Below, piece by piece: positions 4,212 to 11,085 of a stretch of DNA of 11,085 nucleotides. The position numbers and the translations under genes were made by a program. Every line of letters starts with the position of its first letter. The first letter of the stretch is position 1. The stretch spans positions 1 through 11,085 of the forward strand of contig DUES01000204.1 in NCBI GenBank assembly GCA_011192055.1, given 5' to 3'. A model generated the notes under the pieces. That model worked only from the letters and a program-made list of their open reading frames with translations. It did not search any database and was not told where the DNA came from. This DNA is from Dehalococcoidia bacterium. Lineage in GTDB: Bacteria; Chloroflexota; Dehalococcoidia; Dehalococcoidales; Fen-1064.

Positions 4212-5717
4212 CTATGATTCCCTTTCTGTTAGAGGTAGCTTTATGGTGAAAACAGTACCTCTACTTACCTGGCTTTCTACTTCAATGCTACCGTCATTCT
4301 GCTCGACGAGCCGTTTGGTTATGGCCAGCCCAAGGCCGATTCCTTTGGGTTTTGTAGTGTAGAGAGGCTCAAAGATTTTGCCTAGCGCCTCTTCTGGAAT
4401 GCCGCATCCGGAGTCCTCGAACCGAATCCAACCGAAATTACCATCAACCCCGGTATTGACCATAAGCTCTCCGCTATTTTTCATTGCCTGAATGGCATTA
4501 GAGATGATATTTACGATGGCTCGACCCACCTGTTCGCTATCAACAAGAACCTCCGGAAAATCACGGCAAGTGTCTGTTGTTACCATCACGGCCTCCGGTA
4601 CGGTCACCCCGGATAGCCTCTCCGTAACAAGTTGGTTCAGATCGATCCTTGACTGTACCGGTGGGCTGAGGCGGGTGAAATCAAGCAGGTCAGAGACAAT
4701 CCAGTTGGCGCTGTCAACCTGCTGGTCGAGGATGTCCAGGGTTCTGACTATCTCTCCGTCTGCCTTCCCATCAAGAGTGATCTTAAGCAAGTAGACACAG
4801 TTCCGTATTACGTTAAGAGGATTACGAATCTCATGCCCTACCCCGGAGGCCAGTTCCCCCACCGCAGCCAACCTCTCGGAACGAACCAGTCTTTCCTGAG
4901 TTTCCTCCAAGTCTCTGGTTCTCTTTTCCACCATTTCCTCCAACTGTTCGTAGTACCCGTCAAGTGACCGCTGCAACTCTATCGCCCTGATACCACTGCT
5001 GATTCTCTCGGCCAGTATCCTGGCAAGATGCCGTTGTGTTCCGGAGTCCAGGGCGGAATTCACAGGCTGTATGTCGAACCTGCCAAATGTACCGCCACCC
5101 CCGATCATGTCCTCGCTTGCTGTGTCGACCGACTCCGAAAAACCGGGGGGCTCAAACACCCTGTCCCGCACCGATACTCTCACCCTGATTTCACCGTGAC
5201 GTCGCATGAGATGCGGAATGGCATCGGTTACTGCGTAGACAAAGTCATCCACGGAGCCACTGCTTTCAACCAGCCTGCCGATCTCATAGAGACACTGAAG
5301 CTCCTCTGTGCTACGCTGTCCTTGCTCATCACTCTTCTTCAACATGGCTACCACTGCCCCAACAGCACTGAGAATGATGGCAAACGATGTCGGGCGGAAT
5401 ACTGTGCTCGGAGAACCCTCAAGGGTCAAAGCATAGGGCAGGAGCAGAACCATAGACAACATTGCCACCGCCAGAGTGTAGGTTATGCCGACTGTGTAGG
5501 CGGCATATACCACCGGGGCAAAGAACACCAGGGCAAAGAAATCAATGCCATAGAAATCATGGAACCGGTTCAGGATTTCTTCAGCAGACGTCCAGCCGAC
5601 AATATGGGCAAGCACCGGCAGGTAGTAGACTGCAGAGCATGCCAGTATGATGAGACCAATTCGCCAGAAATACCAATCCCTGGTCCTGCCTCTCGACGAA
5701 CCTCTGGTAGCCTTCAT
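4212..5717 (-). CDS. Membrane sensor histidine kinase
   Basis: A 501-residue membrane-bound histidine kinase. About four hydrophobic segments occupy residues 18-126 (for example IGLIILACSAVYYLPVLA and the run around FFALVFFAPVVYAAYTVG), with little extracellular loop, so sensing may be within the membrane. A diverged GAF-like region (about 135-245) and a coiled coil (about 250-285) lead to the HisKA domain with His295 in GHEIRNPL; the HExxN form is also seen in kinases that act as phosphatases. The ATPase domain has Asn407 (NIISNAIQA), Asp435 (EDSGCGIP), the lid FEPLYTTKPKGIGLGLA and a late GTVFTIKLP. I chose the ATG at 5717 because GGGAGG lies 7 nt upstream; an ATG at 5747, overlapping the previous stop as TAATG, is a fair alternative (10 more residues). 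Five nt separate it from the double-receiver gene, its likely partner. Confidence 0.93.
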   Translation of the reverse strand: MKATRGSSRGRTRDWYFWRIGLIILACSAVYYLPVLAHIVGWTSAEEILNRFHDFYGIDFFALVFFAPVVYAAYTVGITYTLAVAMLSMVLLLPYALTLEGSPSTVFRPTSFAIILSAVGAVVAMLKKSDEQGQRSTEELQCLYEIGRLVESSGSVDDFVYAVTDAIPHLMRRHGEIRVRVSVRDRVFEPPGFSESVDTASEDMIGGGGTFGRFDIQPVNSALDSGTQRHLARILAERISSGIRAIELQRSLDGYYEQLEEMVEKRTRDLEETQERLVRSERLAAVGELASGVGHEIRNPLNVIRNCVYLLKITLDGKADGEIVRTLDILDQQVDSANWIVSDLLDFTRLSPPVQSRIDLNQLVTERLSGVTVPEAVMVTTDTCRDFPEVLVDSEQVGRAIVNIISNAIQAMKNSGELMVNTGVDGNFGWIRFEDSGCGIPEEALGKIFEPLYTTKPKGIGLGLAITKRLVEQNDGSIEVESQVSRGTVFTIKLPLTERES

Positions 5718-5724
5718 CTTCCTG

Positions 5725-5730
5725 CCTCCC
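5725..5730 (-). promoter_or_regulatory. Ribosome binding site deciding the membrane kinase start
   Basis: GGGAGG is 7 nt upstream of the ATG at 5717. The in-frame ATG codons at 5747 and 5768 have weaker purine stretches before them, so the 5717 start is preferred, although the TAATG junction at 5747 keeps that alternative open. Confidence 0.6.
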
Positions 5731-5746
5731 GTATTGTTGTGTTCCA

Positions 5747-6331
5747 TTATTTCTTCCAGGGCCACCATCCGCGCCAGTTATGGTGACCACACTTCGTGCA
5801 TCTGAATACGGTTGCTACCGTACCACGACTTCCGCACTCATCACACTGGAAACTCTGAAAGGCACCATATCCCAGCGTACCCTGGAGTTTAGCCGATATC
5901 CCTGCAACATCGTCACTCAGTTTCTGAACCTGTCTGAGCGCAGATAGCTGGTCTTGCGTCAGCACTTGGTCTGTATTGATAACCCCTATTTTGCGCTCCA
6001 ATTGCTCCAGTCTGCCCAGATGCTTTTCCACCCGGCTCAATCGCTCAGACATCTCAGCCATTCTGGCACTCATATCATCAGGTGCCCCGGGAACAGCCGG
6101 AGGCATCTTTGCCGGCTGTGGTGTTGCAGCCTTTGCAACCGTATTTCTCGCACCATCGGACGACGCTGCCCCCGGTGCCTGGTGCCCTGGTTGCTTCAGG
6201 GGTCGTGGCGCATCCTGGGAGGAGACTTCAGGTGTGATTTTCTCCCCCGCACCAGACTTACGTTTGCTGCCCGCACCGGAGTTCGAGAGCAAAGCGTCTA
6301 TTTCAGATTGTGAGAGCAGTTCATTACTCAT
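5747..6331 (-). CDS. FliM-type CheY-binding peptide joined to coiled coil and zinc ribbon
   Basis: I do not recognise the whole protein as a known family. Residues 1-15 (MSNELLSQSEIDALL) match the N-terminal peptide of FliM and FliY, the segment that binds CheY-P at the flagellar switch (ILSQxEIDALL in E. coli FliM). The switch domains of FliM or FliY are absent. A disordered Ser/Pro/Ala-rich linker (about 18-85) follows, then a probable coiled coil (about 88-150, SERLSRVEKHLGRLEQLERK), then a Cys4 zinc ribbon with CxxC at 163-166 and 178-181, and a Trp-rich basic end (NWRGWWPWKK). There is no signal peptide or membrane segment. The ATG at 6331 has a weak GAGAAG 7 nt upstream. It lies between the HD-GYP and kinase genes. 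Inference: a soluble adaptor that takes the CheY-P signal to a non-flagellar target. Confidence 0.87.
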   Translation of the reverse strand: MSNELLSQSEIDALLSNSGAGSKRKSGAGEKITPEVSSQDAPRPLKQPGHQAPGAASSDGARNTVAKAATPQPAKMPPAVPGAPDDMSARMAEMSERLSRVEKHLGRLEQLERKIGVINTDQVLTQDQLSALRQVQKLSDDVAGISAKLQGTLGYGAFQSFQCDECGSRGTVATVFRCTKCGHHNWRGWWPWKK

Positions 6332-6377: not shown

Positions 6378-7457
6378 TCAGTACTCCAGGATATCGGTAA
6401 CGAGTCTACTCTGATACTCGGGCTCCTTCAGGTCGATATCATAGAGTTCGGATAACTCTTCGCCGCTTCGGTCATAGCATACTCGCACTTGTGGTCTGCC
6501 TATGTATCCGATGTTGGGTTCAGTAACAATACCACTCTCCCCCGTACTTAATTTGACCAAAATGCCCTTTGGGTAGAACGGGATACTCCTCACAAAGGTC
6601 TGCGCCAACTCGGGGTCGAATAACTCGCCACTATAGGCGGCGATGTACTCGGCTGCATCCGGTGGAGGGAAAGGCTCCTGTCCCGGTCTTCGGGAGACCA
6701 GCCCGTAGTAACTGCTGGCAATCGATATGATGCGAGAAAGAGGAGATATCTGGCTGCCCTTTAGCCCGGCGGGATACCCGCTGCCGTCCCACCTCTCATG
6801 ATGCTGCAGCACGACCTTCGCGATTCCGTCATCCACACCGCTCTGGCTCAGAATACTGTAGCCGGCTTCAGGATGAGCTTTGTATTCCGGCGATTTGTTC
6901 TCGTCCGCTGCCTGGAGGTTCATCAACACGTGTTGCGATACCTGGATATACCCTATATCCTGCAGGAGAGCGGCCATCCCCAGACTGACCAGGTCGGCCC
7001 GATTGTACCCGGCCTTCTTTCCGATGAAGAGGCATAACCCGGCTACCTTCACCGGGTGGATATAGTCGTAATTGCCCAGGGACAAACATCCTTCGGTGTT
7101 TATCTCACCCATGAAGGCGGAGTCAATACTCTGGATCATAACTTTCACCAGTCGGTCAACTTCCGTTAAGTCCAGTTTGATGTGCTTAATCAATTTCCCC
7201 CGGTTACTATCCACCAACCGGTGAAGTAACCGGATAGCCTGAGCCTCGACTTCCTCTGATATCGAGGGAACGATTATGATATCGTCCACACGAGGGTCCT
7301 GGATGATTATTTCCCTCACTCCCAGCCGGGAAAGGACCGGTACATGCACCGCGTCCAGTACTGTGCCAGCATCCAGAAGCAGGGCACCTGCACTATCGTA
7401 GACAGCTCTGCCCAGAATCGTGCCGAGTGTGGCATACTCAACTGAAATCCGTCTCAT
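6378..7457 (-). CDS. HD-GYP-type protein with degraded metal-binding site
   Basis: Active HD-GYP domains hydrolyse cyclic di-GMP (some act on cGAMP) at a metal centre. This 359-residue protein has an N-terminal region (about 1-65) resembling the lead-in of many HD-GYP proteins, then the HD-GYP fold (about 110-295), then a C-terminal extension (about 296-359) of the FYPKGILVKLSTGE type often seen after such domains. His134, His195, His219-His220 and the GYP block (DGSGYP, 224-229) are present. However, the name-giving HD pair is Gln166-Asp167, the following IGK is IGY, and the late ADxxDA motif is ASSYYG, losing another ligand. It is therefore probably a non-catalytic binding protein, or has altered chemistry. 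Its ATG overlaps the cheR stop by 4 nt behind a strong AGGAGGT (7464-7470), so it is co-translated with the chemotaxis genes. Confidence 0.9.
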   Translation of the reverse strand: MRRISVEYATLGTILGRAVYDSAGALLLDAGTVLDAVHVPVLSRLGVREIIIQDPRVDDIIIVPSISEEVEAQAIRLLHRLVDSNRGKLIKHIKLDLTEVDRLVKVMIQSIDSAFMGEINTEGCLSLGNYDYIHPVKVAGLCLFIGKKAGYNRADLVSLGMAALLQDIGYIQVSQHVLMNLQAADENKSPEYKAHPEAGYSILSQSGVDDGIAKVVLQHHERWDGSGYPAGLKGSQISPLSRIISIASSYYGLVSRRPGQEPFPPPDAAEYIAAYSGELFDPELAQTFVRSIPFYPKGILVKLSTGESGIVTEPNIGYIGRPQVRVCYDRSGEELSELYDIDLKEPEYQSRLVTDILEY

Positions 7458-8305
7458 ATTCGCACCTCCTTGGATATCACGTCCGGTAATGCTGCCCCCT
7501 CAATAGTTGCCGGTTCCGGGCGCAGACAGGACTTACTGTAGAATGACGGGTGTTTCATGGAGAAACCAAGATCATCGGGATGCAAAATGACTTCGCTTCC
7601 TCCAACGAACAACATACCGCCAGCCCGAAGAGACCTGTAGAAATTGGCGTATAGTTTGTCCCGCACAGAGTTCGAGAAATAGATTATCACGTTGCGGCAT
7701 ACTATCAGGTCAAAACTATACTCGAAAGGATCTTTCAGCAAATTGTGGTGTCCAATCTCCACCTTCCTCCTGATGAAATCAGTAACCCGGTAACCATCCT
7801 CTTCCTTCACAAAGAACCGGGCAAGGGTATGCCTGTCAATATTCCTTACGTCTGATTGCGAGTAAGGTCCTCCGTTTCCGGCCTGTTCGAGTGCTTTCCG
7901 GTCTATGTCAGTGGCCAGTATGCGGTGTCTGTGCTGAGGGCAAATGTCTTCCAGCATGATAGCGATAGAATATGCCTCGTGTCCACAGGAACACGCGGTG
8001 CTCCAGATGTTGAGCCTCCGGTTACGTGACAGTAGCTCGGGAAGCACAGTCTTCTTCAGGTACTCGAAGCTTGGCAGGTCTCGGAAGAACTCAGACACGT
8101 TTATAGCCAGGTAGTCCATGAGTTCGATAACCATTTCCGGGTTCTGGTCCAACATCCGGCAGTAGCCAGCGATATCCGTAGCACTGCTCTTGTTCACGTA
8201 ACCCTCGAGGCGACGGCGCATCTGCCGGCTCTTGTAAGCATCCAGGTCTATATCCGTCAGCTTCAGTATCTTGTGCTTCAAATAAGAATACTCCAGGTCA
8301 TCCAT
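7454..8305 (-). CDS. cheR: CheR, chemoreceptor methyltransferase
   Basis: CheR transfers methyl groups from S-adenosylmethionine to receptor glutamates, opposing CheB. The 283-residue protein has the N-terminal helical CheR domain (about 1-75, ending in INVSEFFRD) and the methyltransferase domain (about 80-265). The latter shows the SAM-binding stretch WSTACSCGHEAYSIA, ATDID at 131-135, the CRNVIIYF motif at 203-210 and GGSEVI at 235-240. The usual STGEE reads SCGHE here, with one acidic residue replaced by His; the second Glu and YS are kept. The ATG at 8305 is preceded by GGGGGAG with 5 nt spacing and overlaps the cheB stop by 8 nt. A longer ORF from 8398 would run through cheB and adds no homologous sequence. 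The stop overlaps the next start as ATGA. Confidence 0.96.
   Translation of the reverse strand: MDDLEYSYLKHKILKLTDIDLDAYKSRQMRRRLEGYVNKSSATDIAGYCRMLDQNPEMVIELMDYLAINVSEFFRDLPSFEYLKKTVLPELLSRNRRLNIWSTACSCGHEAYSIAIMLEDICPQHRHRILATDIDRKALEQAGNGGPYSQSDVRNIDRHTLARFFVKEEDGYRVTDFIRRKVEIGHHNLLKDPFEYSFDLIVCRNVIIYFSNSVRDKLYANFYRSLRAGGMLFVGGSEVILHPDDLGFSMKHPSFYSKSCLRPEPATIEGAALPDVISKEVRI
7464..7470 (-). promoter_or_regulatory. Ribosome binding site of the HD-GYP-type gene
   Basis: AGGAGGT lies 6 nt before the ATG at 7457, within the final codons of cheR. It fixes the HD-GYP start at the ATGA overlap. Confidence 0.8.
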
Positions 8306-9368
8306 TGTAGCTCCCCCTTCTCTCACCGTTATGCATACGAACCAACTCGGGAACAATCCTGGACAGTGGTAACACCCGGTCAGCGTTTCCGGCATCAATC
8401 ACGCTTCGGGGCATACCCCAGACTATGGAAGTAGATTCACTCTCGGCTATAACTCTGCCACCGACCGCCCGAATCATTCCGGTACCTTCGGTGCCGTCCG
8501 AGCCCATACCAGTTAGTACTGCCGCAACGAGCGAGGCCCCGAAAACCGCGGCAGCGGAACGCATAGTCACATCAACAGAAGGGCGGACCCCACACACCAA
8601 AGGGCCCTGGTTCAGTCCCACCGAATAATCTCTATTGATCATCATGTGATAGCCACCGGGAGCAATCAATACCTCCCCTGTTCTGATTGCGTCTCCCTCG
8701 GCAGCTTCTTTAACCGCGACTCCTGACAACTGATCCAGGCGGTTTGCCATAGACCGGGTGAATCCCTGCGGCATATGCTGGACAACCAGAATGCCAGCCG
8801 GCCGATCGGACGGCAAGGATGGAACAATCTGGTACAGGGCTCGAGGGCCGCCAGTTGAACAACCGATCACAATCGCTCTGTCCGGTGGAAATCCGCCAAC
8901 ATTCCGGTTTTTGGGAACCGCAGTGCAGTCTGCTTTAAGTAACGGCCTGCCAACCCTCGTCACCTTCACCCCGGCGGCCACTCTTATCTTGGTCTTCAGA
9001 TCATCGGCACTACTGTAATCCCCGAGGGGGCCAATCTGTGATGATTTGAGAAAGAAGTCAACAGCTCCTAACTCCAGTGCCCTGATGGTCGTCTCTGTTC
9101 CTGCCCCGGTCAGACTGCTCAACATGATTACCGGCGTAGGATGCTCCAGCATTACCCTATGTAGAGTATCAATGCCATTCAGCTGCGGCATCTCCACGTC
9201 AAGCGTGACTACATCCGGTTTCAGTTCCTTTATCTGTTCCAGGGCCTCAAGCCCATTCCGGGCAAAGCCCACAACCTTTATTCCCGCATCACTTTCCAGT
9301 TCGCGGATAATGGAGTATCTGGCAAAGGCCGAATCATCAACCACCAGCACCCTGATAATGCTTTCCAC
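8298..9368 (-). CDS. cheB: CheB, receptor methylesterase/deamidase response regulator
   Basis: CheB removes methyl groups from glutamate sites on chemoreceptors when its receiver is phosphorylated by CheA. The 356-residue protein has the usual two parts. The receiver (about 1-125) has Asp11-Asp12, acceptor Asp57 (TLDVEMP), Ser84/Ser85 at the switch position and Lys108. The esterase domain (about 163-350) has the catalytic triad Ser171 (GCSTGGP), His198 (VVQHMP) and Asp291 (MGSDG). I chose the GTG at 9368 because GAGGTG lies 6 nt upstream (9375-9380) and the protein then begins directly with the receiver. An upstream ATG at 9446 would overlap cheY and add 26 residues unlike the family. The end overlaps the cheR start by 8 nt (8298-8305). 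Nothing looks impaired. Confidence 0.97.
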   Translation of the reverse strand: MESIIRVLVVDDSAFARYSIIRELESDAGIKVVGFARNGLEALEQIKELKPDVVTLDVEMPQLNGIDTLHRVMLEHPTPVIMLSSLTGAGTETTIRALELGAVDFFLKSSQIGPLGDYSSADDLKTKIRVAAGVKVTRVGRPLLKADCTAVPKNRNVGGFPPDRAIVIGCSTGGPRALYQIVPSLPSDRPAGILVVQHMPQGFTRSMANRLDQLSGVAVKEAAEGDAIRTGEVLIAPGGYHMMINRDYSVGLNQGPLVCGVRPSVDVTMRSAAAVFGASLVAAVLTGMGSDGTEGTGMIRAVGGRVIAESESTSIVWGMPRSVIDAGNADRVLPLSRIVPELVRMHNGERRGSYNG

Positions 9369-9374
9369 GGTACC

Positions 9375-9380
9375 CACCTC
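9375..9380 (-). promoter_or_regulatory. Ribosome binding site deciding the cheB GTG start
   Basis: GAGGTG sits 6 nt upstream of the GTG at 9368. This supports the GTG over the more distant ATG at 9446, which lies within cheY. Confidence 0.75.
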
Positions 9381-9402
9381 ACAGATGCGACTATTCCACA
9401 GT

Positions 9403-9759
9403 TTATTGGAGGATTCTGTCCAGAGCCGCCAGCACTCTATCGGCACTGAAAGGCTTCACCACAAAGTCCTTTGCTCCCGACTTCAATGCCTCAATGACCA
9501 TGGACTGCTGGCCCATCGCCGTAACCATGGCTACCCTGACTCCGTTATCTATCTCGACGAGCTTCTTCAGGGTGTCTATTCCATCCATCTCAGGCATGGT
9601 GATATCCAACAAGACAGCATCAGGCTTGTTTGCAGTGTATTTCTGTATTGCCTCGACGCCATTCGATGCCTCCACCACCTTATGTCCATTCTCAGTCAGT
9701 AACTTGGCGCACCTCATTCGCATGAAGGCAGCATCATCCACAACCATTATCATTGACAC
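9403..9759 (-). CDS. cheY: CheY, single-domain chemotaxis response regulator
   Basis: A single receiver domain of 118 residues that should be phosphorylated by CheA (not in view) and carry the signal to an output target. All canonical residues are present: acidic pair Asp8-Asp9, phospho-acceptor Asp52 in LLDITMPEMDG, switch Thr80 (VTAMG), and Lys102-Pro103 (VVKPF). The start is the GTG at 9759, nine nt after AAAGGAGGT; an ATG two codons later is too far from that site. The VTAMGQQ segment and overall shape resemble the CheY of CheC/CheD-containing systems. It sits between its degenerate paralogue (45-nt gap) and cheB (34-nt gap). The nearby CheC gives a dephosphorylation route, and the FliM-type peptide encoded at 6331 gives a possible docking partner. 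Confidence 0.93.
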   Translation of the reverse strand: MSMIMVVDDAAFMRMRCAKLLTENGHKVVEASNGVEAIQKYTANKPDAVLLDITMPEMDGIDTLKKLVEIDNGVRVAMVTAMGQQSMVIEALKSGAKDFVVKPFSADRVLAALDRILQ

Positions 9760-9804: not shown

Positions 9805-10161
9805 CTATCCAACAGGCTTCTGTACGGTATCGACTACCATCTCACTGTCAGACGGTTTTATGAGAAAATCACTGGCGCCCGACTCCAACGCTTCTATTAT
9901 CACGGAATGCTGCCCTATCACAGAGGCCATATCCACTCCGGCACCGGGGTCTATCTCCAGCAGTCTCCTCGGTGCAGTCATCCCGCCCATGTGAGACACG
10001 ATAATGTCCATGAATACCGCATCCGGGTGATTATCAACGTATCTCTCCAGCATCCCTGTTCCATCTACTACCTCAACTAACTCATATCCTTTCTCACCCA
10101 ACGCTTGCTCGCACCTCGTGCGAACGAACGCGGCACCATCTACAATCGGTATTCTCGGCAT
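9805..10161 (-). CDS. Diverged CheY-like receiver, paralogue of the adjacent CheY
   Basis: A stand-alone receiver of 118 residues from the ATG at 10161, which has an AGAGG ribosome site 8 nt upstream. An ATG at 10185 would add eight residues (MKEKEDVR), but its GAGG lies only 1 nt away, and the shorter form aligns end to end with the next gene's CheY (also 118 aa) without a gap. By my count about 48 of 118 residues are identical. The phospho-acceptor Asp52 and Lys102 remain and the switch Thr80 is Ser, but the acidic pair Asp8-Asp9 has become Asp-Gly and the MPEMDG loop has become VSHMGG, losing Pro56 and Asp59. Mg2+ binding and phosphorylation are therefore doubtful. It may be a phosphate sink, a phosphorylation-independent binding partner, or a decaying copy. 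The intact frame argues that it is, or recently was, expressed. Confidence 0.85.
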   Translation of the reverse strand: MPRIPIVDGAAFVRTRCEQALGEKGYELVEVVDGTGMLERYVDNHPDAVFMDIIVSHMGGMTAPRRLLEIDPGAGVDMASVIGQHSVIIEALESGASDFLIKPSDSEMVVDTVQKPVG

Positions 10162-10169
10162 CCGGACAT

Positions 10170-10174
10170 CCTCT
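10170..10174 (-). promoter_or_regulatory. Ribosome binding site deciding the diverged receiver start
   Basis: AGAGG lies 8 nt before the ATG at 10161. The upstream ATG at 10185 has GAGG only 1 nt away, which is too close, so the shorter protein that aligns exactly to CheY is preferred. Confidence 0.6.
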
Positions 10175-10188
10175 TTTTCTTTCATACC

Positions 10189-10692
10189 TCATATCTTGAT
10201 CGGCTGTCCACCGGCCACTTTGACGAAGACATCACCTGAATCCAGAAGCATCTGCACTGAACGGCCGGACGTACCTCCAGTTTCAGCACCACTCAGGGAA
10301 ACCCTTTCTCTGACCAGAGCTTCCTTGGTTGCCACGATGTTCCTCTCGCCGATATCAAGCCGGTTATTACCCGGTATCGACAGCATCCGGGCGCCACCGG
10401 CTATCTTCACCTTCAGCCGGGACCTGAGTGCACCCTGCTCTATCGCCTTCTGAATCAGCAGGGGGACGCCGGAATTCACGTACTTCGCCGGTAGCCCATC
10501 GCTGCTCTTCGAATTTCCTTCAGGCATCACCATATGCGCCATTGCACCGATACGGGAAACAGGGTCATAGATACACAGGGCAATACACGATCCCAGGCCA
10601 ATACAGCTCAGTACCGACATCGACCCTTTTAATACTTGCATCTCTCCCAAGCCAACTACTATCGATTCGCGTTGTTCCGTCAATACGGTCAT
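10189..10692 (-). CDS. cheD: CheD, chemoreceptor glutamine deamidase
   Basis: CheD deamidates specific Gln residues of chemoreceptors and, in CheC/CheD systems, is bound by CheC, which links receptor modification to CheY-P level. The 167-residue length is normal. The nucleophile motif LGSC gives Cys36, and His53 lies 17 residues later in GAMAHMVMP, the same Cys-to-His spacing as in characterised CheD. The KIAGGARML and IGERN blocks and the late GRSVQM segment are also family-typical. The catalytic Thr found six residues before the Cys in family members I recall is Cys30 here (motif SCIGLGSC), an uncommon change that could affect activity. The ATG overlaps the cheC stop by 4 nt, and the pairing with cheC fits the family. 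The family assignment is firm; full catalytic competence is inferred. Confidence 0.95.
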   Translation of the reverse strand: MTVLTEQRESIVVGLGEMQVLKGSMSVLSCIGLGSCIALCIYDPVSRIGAMAHMVMPEGNSKSSDGLPAKYVNSGVPLLIQKAIEQGALRSRLKVKIAGGARMLSIPGNNRLDIGERNIVATKEALVRERVSLSGAETGGTSGRSVQMLLDSGDVFVKVAGGQPIKI

Positions 10693-11085
10693 CCGGTTTC
10701 TCCTCCGCCACCGTTTCCTTTCTTGTCAAATGCGGGCAGAACCAGGAAATGCCCCTGTATTTCCCTGCCAACAGCACTGAAGGTCAATCTCAGTACGAAC
10801 ACAGACTCATTCTCCATAAGCGCCTCAGCCATGACTGAGTTGACCAGTGCCCCGACCATGTCTTCAACAACCGCTGGCGGTGAAGGCATAAGACGTACGT
10901 CAGCACTGTCCGCCAGAGCATTCAGGAAGAACGTCCCAACGATGTTACCCATCTCGCCAAGGACAGACCGTTCCATCTCTTCCAGGCTCGTGGTGGACCC
11001 TGTTGGAATGCCCATCGCCATGTCCACCAGTTCAAAGGCCACGCTGGGCTGAAAAGCCAGCAGTATCTGACCGTGAGTAGCACCA
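10689..11085 (-). CDS. cheC: CheC-type CheY-P phosphatase, 5' end off the window
   Basis: CheC-family proteins remove phosphate from CheY-P in the cytoplasm and partner with CheD. The reading frame is open to the right edge of the window: in-frame codons continue upstream of the GTG at 11042 (translated GATHGQILLAFQPS), so that GTG is internal and the true start is outside. The visible 131 residues correspond to the second half of a CheC protein. They contain the phosphatase signature S-x3-E-x2-N-x22-P (SVLGEMGN, then a Pro-Pro), followed by a helix typical of the family (VEDMVGALVNSVMAEAL). The C-terminus is a short Gly-rich tail. The stop codon overlaps the cheD start as ATGA (10689-10692), so translation is probably coupled. 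Whether a first phosphatase motif exists, as in two-site CheC or FliY, cannot be seen. CheX is a less likely alternative. The match to CheC is strong. Confidence 0.88.
   Translation of the reverse strand, partial: GATHGQILLAFQPSVAFELVDMAMGIPTGSTTSLEEMERSVLGEMGNIVGTFFLNALADSADVRLMPSPPAVVEDMVGALVNSVMAEALMENESVFVLRLTFSAVGREIQGHFLVLPAFDKKGNGGGGETG

What the first reader, a model, noticed from the sequence alone, without database searches (positions are those of the whole stretch)
5747..6331. A FliM-type CheY-P docking peptide on a zinc-ribbon protein: candidate non-flagellar chemotaxis output adaptor
Seen directly: residues 1-15 (MSNELLSQSEIDALL) are almost the FliM/FliY N-terminal consensus, yet there is no switch domain. 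The rest is a Pro/Ala linker, a coiled coil, a CxxC-x11-CxxC zinc ribbon and a Trp-rich tail. Established knowledge: in FliM and FliY this peptide binds CheY-P. Inference: with intact cheY and cheC in the same operon and no flagellar gene visible, the peptide has been placed on a different scaffold to route CheY-P to another machine (for example pilus, surface or transcriptional). The coiled coil would allow oligomers, mimicking the many copies in a switch ring. I know of no described family with this layout.
Basis: partly seen in the sequence, partly recalled or inferred. Interest (0 to 1): 0.82.

Follow-up and report, generated by a model that had tools for sequence, protein, structure and literature searches.

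The report
FliM-peptide adaptor for bacterial archaella
A small, undescribed protein in some Chloroflexota bacteria carries the short peptide that chemotaxis normally uses to steer flagella, but it occurs in bacteria that carry genes for an archaeal-type swimming motor, so it is probably the missing link that lets chemotaxis steer that borrowed motor.

Summary
The 194-aa protein (5747-6331, minus strand) begins MSNELLSQSEIDALL, has no switch domain, and ends in a C-x2-C-x11-C-x2-C ribbon and a Trp-rich tail. Relatives form a family of at least 144 clusters; the N-terminal peptide is in 137, and the other 7 are short, apparently N-truncated entries. Peptide and ribbon are conserved; the linker is not. 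All nine match the archaellin family, in four the gene lies near a complete archaellum cluster on the same contig, and FliM was found in none. In 400 evenly drawn Chloroflexota, 12 match the archaellin family; only two of those 12 have CheW/CheA, and exactly these two have the protein. Published work reports that CheF, the archaeal CheY-to-archaellum adaptor, is absent from Chloroflexota and suggests another component. Best reading: this protein is that component. CheY-P docks on a FliM-type peptide, and the coiled coil and ribbon attach to the archaellar switch. Linkage and co-occurrence are shown; binding, docking partner and switching are inferred. The window's own genome is not held, so its archaellum was not seen.

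The parts
5747..6331 (-). Adaptor gene, 194 aa: FliM-type peptide, Pro/Ala linker, coiled coil, Cys4 zinc ribbon, Trp-rich tail
   Evidence: ORF; family alignments; AlphaFold2 models
6287..6319 (-). Codons of residues 5-15 (LLSQSEIDALL), the FliM-type CheY-P docking peptide
   Evidence: Sequence; 65% identity across 23 non-redundant members; carried by 137 of 144 clusters; chance control
5759..5881 (-). Codons of residues 151-191: GTLGY motif, C-x2-C-x11-C-x2-C ribbon and WRGWWP tail
   Evidence: 57% identity; Cys4 pattern in 143 of 144 clusters
6378..7457 (-). HD-GYP domain protein, gene directly upstream of the adaptor (46-nt gap)
   Evidence: Pfam HD_5/HD; gap
7454..8398 (-). cheR
   Evidence: Pfam CheR E 4e-52
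8298..9446 (-). cheB
   Evidence: Pfam CheB_methylest E 4e-62
9403..9759 (-). cheY, intact receiver, the proposed ligand of the peptide
   Evidence: Pfam Response_reg; best solved matches are archaeal and Thermotoga CheY; comparison of the FliM-binding face
9805..10185 (-). Second, degenerate receiver (acidic pair DD replaced by DG)
10189..10692 (-). cheD
   Evidence: Pfam CheD
10689..11084 (-). cheC, cut at the window edge
   Evidence: Pfam CheC E 1e-7
4212..5768 (-). Sensor histidine kinase downstream of the adaptor
   Evidence: Pfam HisKA, HATPase_c

Best explanation
The protein is an adaptor that connects a bacterial chemotaxis pathway to an archaellum acquired from archaea. CheA phosphorylates CheY; CheY-P binds the N-terminal FliM-type helix (LSQSEIDALL); the long flexible linker acts as a tether; [quoted passage not shown] This brings CheY-P to the motor and changes its rotation. 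It would do the job that CheF does in archaea, but with the flagellar docking peptide on a new scaffold. Shown: architecture, conservation, operon linkage, co-occurrence with archaellum plus che genes, and FliM not found. Inferred: CheY-P binding, oligomer state, zinc binding, docking partner and effect on rotation.
For: (1) Linkage: cheR lies upstream in 9 of 9 genomes. In G616, G934 and G954 the order is che genes-HD-GYP-adaptor-kinase/regulators-arlB-arlCDE-like-arlG-arlF-arlH-arlI-arlJ on one strand; in G600 the adaptor gene is convergent with the arl operon, one ORF between. ArlI, ArlH, ArlJ and archaellin of G616 and G600 by Pfam; ArlI of G616 by NCBIfam, 672.9 bits, cut-off 550. (2) Co-occurrence: adaptor in 2 of 400 Chloroflexota, archaellin-family match in 12 of 400, both adaptor genomes among the 12 (chance 8e-4). 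CheW in 2 of the 12, the same two. In 80 of 110 relatives of G616, archaellin family in 9 and adaptor in 7, all 7 within the 9 (chance 1e-8). Both chances ignore relatedness. (3) In the ArlI tree the che-less, adaptor-less G564 is sister to adaptor-bearing G600 in both copies (91/89 and 96/93), so the adaptor follows che rather than archaellum ancestry alone. (4) FliM in 0 of 9 adaptor genomes. (5) The alpha4-beta5-alpha5 stretch of nine CheYs is 61-67% identical to Thermotoga CheY and 46-54% to Pyrococcus CheY, while the rest is 48-56% and 54-59%; FliM binds in the alpha4/alpha5 groove, CheF near the phosphorylation site (PMC9126983, passages). (6) PMC12488501 (passages and two sections) reports CheF absent from Chloroflexota and suggests another component took its role.
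Against: No binding, complex structure or motility experiment. The ribbon's partner is not identified: Foldseek found nothing, and the ArlC/D/E-like proteins, assigned by position, have no Pfam hit of that kind and occur with and without the adaptor. A ribbon-only relative in G937, which has no archaellin-family match, shows the ribbon is not confined to archaella. Two archaellin-family-positive relatives (G996, G1006) lack the adaptor and were not tested for che genes. Of the 12 archaellin-positive genomes, ArlI was found near the match in 8; it was not in the stretches I fetched of G640, G811, G825 and G846, so these may lack a full archaellum. In G975 the archaellin-family match (4.6e-7) is an ArlF-like protein in a cut arl cluster, not archaellin itself. 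Samples are small, genomes related, completeness unknown. The Thermotoga/Pyrococcus comparison rests on one protein each, and the best solved match of the window CheY is the archaeal one. The window's own archaellum was not seen.
Confidence: 0.8

Rival explanations
1. The protein binds CheY-P but is a sink or scaffold that tunes CheY-P lifetime or array position (with CheC/CheD), while another unknown protein contacts the archaellar motor.
For: The gene lies with cheC and cheD in the window and in several genomes; a peptide that binds CheY-P could compete with other targets.
Against: A sink would have no reason to occur only where archaella occur; in the samples the adaptor is confined to genomes with an archaellin-family match and lies near the archaellum cluster in four genomes.
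Confidence: 0.1
2. The protein carries CheY-P to a gene-expression or second-messenger target: the neighbouring kinase/response regulators or HD-GYP proteins, for example to control archaellum expression.
For: HD-GYP genes lie directly upstream in the window and in nine genomes; kinase/regulator genes lie downstream in the window, G616, G934, G954 and G957; Cys4 ribbons occur in transcription proteins (general knowledge).
Against: In G600 the arl operon, and in G935 unrelated genes, follow the adaptor with no kinase between; the Pfam scans of the adaptor show no DNA-binding domain over cut-off.
Confidence: 0.08
3. The peptide is a chance resemblance or a relic of FliM without CheY binding, and the protein is a structural part of the archaellum or che array.
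For: No binding data; nine clusters have Asn, Glu or Lys in place of Ser/Thr at the second peptide position.
Against: Conservation of the peptide (65%) against the neighbouring linker (14%); motif in the first 40 aa of 13 of 3003 ORFs, all read as FliM/FliY; not found in ten archaellin-positive genomes without CheW.
Confidence: 0.02

Closest known systems
FliM / FliY (flagellar switch proteins), N-terminal CheY-P docking peptide
   Same: N-terminal LSQxEIDALL-type helix followed by a flexible linker; weak profile match to solved FliM residues 1-27.
   Different: No FliM middle domain or SpoA domain hit; coiled coil and Cys4 ribbon instead; FliM not found in the nine carrier genomes.
CheF, the archaeal CheY-to-archaellum adaptor
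   Same: Proposed role: CheY-P to the archaellar switch.
   Different: No CheF family among the Pfam hits. CheF is an elongated dimer with PH-like domains that contacts CheY near the phosphorylation site (PMC9126983, passages); the peptide here is of the FliM type, which uses the alpha4/alpha5 groove. Reported absent from Chloroflexota (PMC12488501, passages).
Bacterial archaellum of Chloroflexota (Litorilinea aerophila and others)
   Same: Same arl gene set (arlB, arlCDE-like, arlG/F, arlH, arlI, arlJ) in Chloroflexota.
   Different: In the passages and sections read no CheY-motor adaptor is named; this family would supply it in the lineages that have che genes.

Membership tests
FliM/FliY | N-terminal EIDALL docking peptide | tested here: met
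   Residues 10-15 are EIDALL; 137 of 144 family clusters carry the peptide or a close variant
FliM/FliY | FliM middle domain (PF02154) or C-terminal SpoA domain | tested here: not met
   No hit at E<=1 in the window protein and none in two relatives at E<=5
FliM/FliY | Occurs with a flagellar motor | tested here: not met
   PF02154 in 0 of 9 adaptor genomes; it rang in G607, G700 and G1006 of the 25 searched; other flagellar genes were not searched
CheF | Sequence match to the archaeal CheF family | tested here: not met
   No CheF family among Pfam hits at E<=1 or, for two relatives, E<=5; that Pfam holds a CheF model is recalled
CheF | Works with che and archaellum genes | tested here: met
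   che genes upstream in 9 of 9, arl cluster nearby in 4 of 9 and arl genes elsewhere in the other 5
CheF | PH-like domains and CheY-binding C-terminal domain | tested here: not met
   The model, of moderate confidence, shows only helices, disorder and a small ribbon; no fold match in the PDB
CheY-P output adaptor (function) | Phosphorylation-dependent binding to CheY and contact with the motor | not testable with these tools
Cys4 zinc ribbon | Two CxxC knuckles | tested here: met
   C-x2-C-x11-C-x2-C in the window protein; Cys4 pattern in 143 of 144 clusters; metal binding itself not tested

The most novel reading that the evidence does not exclude
Some Chloroflexota that took an archaellum from archaea did not keep CheF but re-wired the archaeal motor to a bacterial chemotaxis system by moving the flagellar FliM docking peptide onto a new coiled-coil zinc-ribbon scaffold. 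This is a previously undescribed adaptor family and a third kind of CheY-P receiver at a rotary motor besides FliM/FliY and CheF.
Probability: 0.75. Interest if true: 0.88.

Novelty: new variant of a known kind. Interest (0 to 1): 0.84.

Why it matters
How chemotaxis reaches the archaellum in bacteria is an open question stated in the 2025 paper on the Chloroflexota archaellum (PMC12488501, passages): CheF is absent and its replacement unknown. This family gives a concrete, testable candidate. It also suggests that the CheY-P docking peptide is a portable module that can be joined to a different motor, which bears on how a transferred motor is brought under the control of its new host.

Tried and rejected
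Pilus, surface or transcriptional targets were considered and set aside after archaellum clusters were found near the gene. Chance resemblance was rejected by the ORF control. The family could not be reached directly in genome contigs (nothing) or viral contigs (nothing); a cheB query gave 80 loci, none titled Chloroflexota. A Thermomicrobium plasmid led only to its own record. A 16S pattern found nothing in 386 genomes. In one search, two weak matches in 150 genomes (E 1.5e-4 and 6.3e-4) lie in the coiled coil and were taken as chance. In one search, three of the five matches were not counted as adaptors: G607 (its own FliM), G700 (E 8e-6, coiled-coil stretch; the genome has FliM) and G693 (E 2e-4, linker and coiled coil); the last two matches were not read further. 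In one search, G937 was not counted because only a ribbon at the end of another protein is there; G935 was counted after its short but complete adaptor was read. Foldseek gave no match with E<=0.001. PHROGs, PADLOC and the viral fold library were not searched.

Full report
WHAT IS THERE. The finding's protein is encoded on the minus strand at 5747-6331. It is 194 aa long: MSNELLSQSEIDALL, a Pro/Ala-rich linker, two helices, and a C-x2-C-x11-C-x2-C ribbon ending WRGWWPWKK. Pfam gives no family over its cut-off; NCBIfam gives nothing near a cut-off. AlphaFold2 with 49 rows gives a helix at 8-17, low confidence about 20-76, helices 84-117 and 126-149, and a ribbon at pLDDT about 87; overall mean 65.8, pTM 0.28. 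With 27 rows the ribbon was poorly predicted. The gene follows cheC, cheD, a degenerate receiver, cheY, cheB, cheR and an HD-GYP gene, with a gap of 46 nt.

IS IT MORE THAN CHANCE. Three protein searches gave 144 clusters (counted); the last two scored only about 8000 candidates each, so this is a lower bound. A strict peptide pattern fits 128 of 144 and a looser one P0019 as well. Eight more have Asn or Glu at its second position. The remaining seven are 104-142 aa entries that start inside the protein, two of them (P0047, P0126) on long contigs where I did not settle why. The Cys4 pattern is in 143 of 144; the exception, P0001, ends early. In 23 non-redundant members (of 49 rows; rows under 170 aa and rows at or above 75% identity to one already kept were dropped), mean pairwise identity is 65% in the peptide, 14% in the linker, 27-29% in the helices and 57% in the ribbon. 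As control, 3003 six-frame ORFs of at least 100 aa from 80 bacterial cheB loci contain the motif in the first 40 aa 13 times; from the printed N-termini I read all 13 as FliM or FliY. A profile search of solved structures lists FliM, residues 1-27 against profile positions 1-27, E 0.064, below many coiled-coil matches.

WHO HAS IT. Seven rows bear an organism name, all Dehalococcoidales, Dehalococcoidia or Chloroflexi. No whole genome is held for the window. I reached Chloroflexota genomes through G221, judged Chloroflexota from its genes. In 400 genomes drawn evenly from its phylum the family profile found two full-length members, G616 (E 1e-44) and G600 (E 8e-33); three weaker rows were not counted. 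Among 110 relatives of G616 it found G616 itself, six further full-length members and two ribbon-only rows. One of these, G935, has a complete 126-aa member directly overlapping the HD-GYP gene; the other, G937, carries only a ribbon at the end of another protein. The member of G945 is identical to P0052, named Chloroflexi bacterium.

WHERE IT LIES. In all nine genomes the gene follows cheR (Pfam, 9 of 9) and one or two HD-GYP genes (Pfam in 8, signature motif in G600). cheA was seen on the same contig in G616, G600, G934, G935 and G957; in the other four the contig ends before it would be reached. In G616, G934 and G954 the gene is followed, on the same strand, by kinase and regulator genes and then an archaellum cluster with arlB, arlCDE-like, arlG, arlF, arlH, arlI and arlJ; in G600 it is convergent with an arl operon, one ORF between. 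Archaellin, KaiC-like ArlH, ArlI and ArlJ were confirmed by Pfam in G616 and G600 (ArlJ of G600 just under its cut-off), and by NCBIfam in G616: ArlI over its cut-off, ArlH over one of its models, ArlJ and ArlG below theirs. In G945, G950, G957 and G975 the adaptor contigs are short and arl genes lie on other contigs, only partly held for G945, G957 and G975; in G935 the two loci are on separate long contigs.

CO-OCCURRENCE. The archaellin family (PF01917, which here also picks up ArlF/ArlG-like proteins) matches in 12 of the same 400 genomes, including both adaptor genomes (chance 8e-4). ArlI lies near the match in 8 of the 12; it was not in the stretches fetched of G640, G811, G825 and G846. 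CheW is in 3 of 13 genomes searched: G600 and G616 among the 12, and the flagellated control G607. Thus in this sample adaptor means archaellum plus chemotaxis, and the ten archaellin-positive genomes without CheW lack it. In 80 of the 110 relatives of G616, PF01917 matches in 9; the adaptor is in 7, all within those 9 (chance 1e-8). In G975 the match is an ArlF-like protein inside a cut arl cluster. The two others of the 9, G996 and G1006, have arl clusters and were not tested for che genes. FliM (PF02154) is in 3 of 25 genomes searched: G607, G700 and G1006; it is in 0 of the 9 adaptor genomes. The chances ignore relatedness. The ArlI tree of 17 rows puts che-less, adaptor-less G564 beside adaptor-bearing G600 and needs three changes of the adaptor label.

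HOW IT MOST LIKELY WORKS. In bacteria CheY-P binds the EIDALL helix of FliM/FliY; in archaea it binds CheF, which sits on ArlCDE (PMC9126983, passages read). CheF is reported absent from Chloroflexota, and the authors suggest another protein component (PMC12488501, passages and two sections read). The nine intact CheYs compared from these loci, the window's included, are closer to Thermotoga CheY over alpha4-beta5-alpha5 (61-67% against 46-54% to Pyrococcus CheY) but not over the rest (48-56% against 54-59%). This fits a retained FliM-binding face but rests on two reference proteins; over its whole length the window CheY scores slightly better with the archaeal one. I infer that CheY-P docks on the peptide and that the coiled coil and ribbon hold the protein at the archaellar switch. 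The partner is unknown: an ArlC/D/E-like protein, assigned by position, is present with and without the adaptor, and fold search gave nothing.

NOVELTY. Nine text searches of the held open-access library were made; no title or abstract start in their listings describes such a protein. Only PMC12488501 and PMC9126983 were opened, by passages and (the first) two sections. Subscription papers and preprints were not searched. The kind of function, a CheY-P receiver at a rotary motor, is known; this architecture and its pairing with an archaellum are not described in what I could search.

Noticed in passing
window 9805-10185 (-): A second receiver next to cheY has lost part of the acidic pocket (DD to DG) and the usual KPF end, while a second receiver in G600 keeps the DD pair; a pseudo-receiver in the window's operon.
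   Followed up: partly
L130:13075-16566; L178-L179; L253:3715-7217: G600, G564 and G1006 carry two tandem arlI genes that form two separate clades in the ArlI tree: an old duplication of the archaellar motor ATPase.
   Followed up: partly
L254 (G1006, contig of 5956 bases): FliM and neighbouring motility-type genes (read by eye) on a short contig of a genome that also has an archaellum cluster; either an exception to the published mutual exclusion or a mis-binned contig.
   Followed up: no
L209:6011-6124 (-): A ribbon like the adaptor's, ending TWLGWWPE, at the C-terminus of another protein in a genome without an archaellin-family match; no docking peptide in the part read.
   Followed up: partly
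window 6378-7457; L127; L205; L206; L207: One or two HD-GYP genes lie between cheR and the adaptor in the window and in all nine genomes, which suggests a cyclic-di-GMP input to the same output.
   Followed up: partly
P0031-P0046: A 293-295 aa subfamily with a much longer coiled coil and a very constant N-terminus; its genome context was not seen.
   Followed up: no
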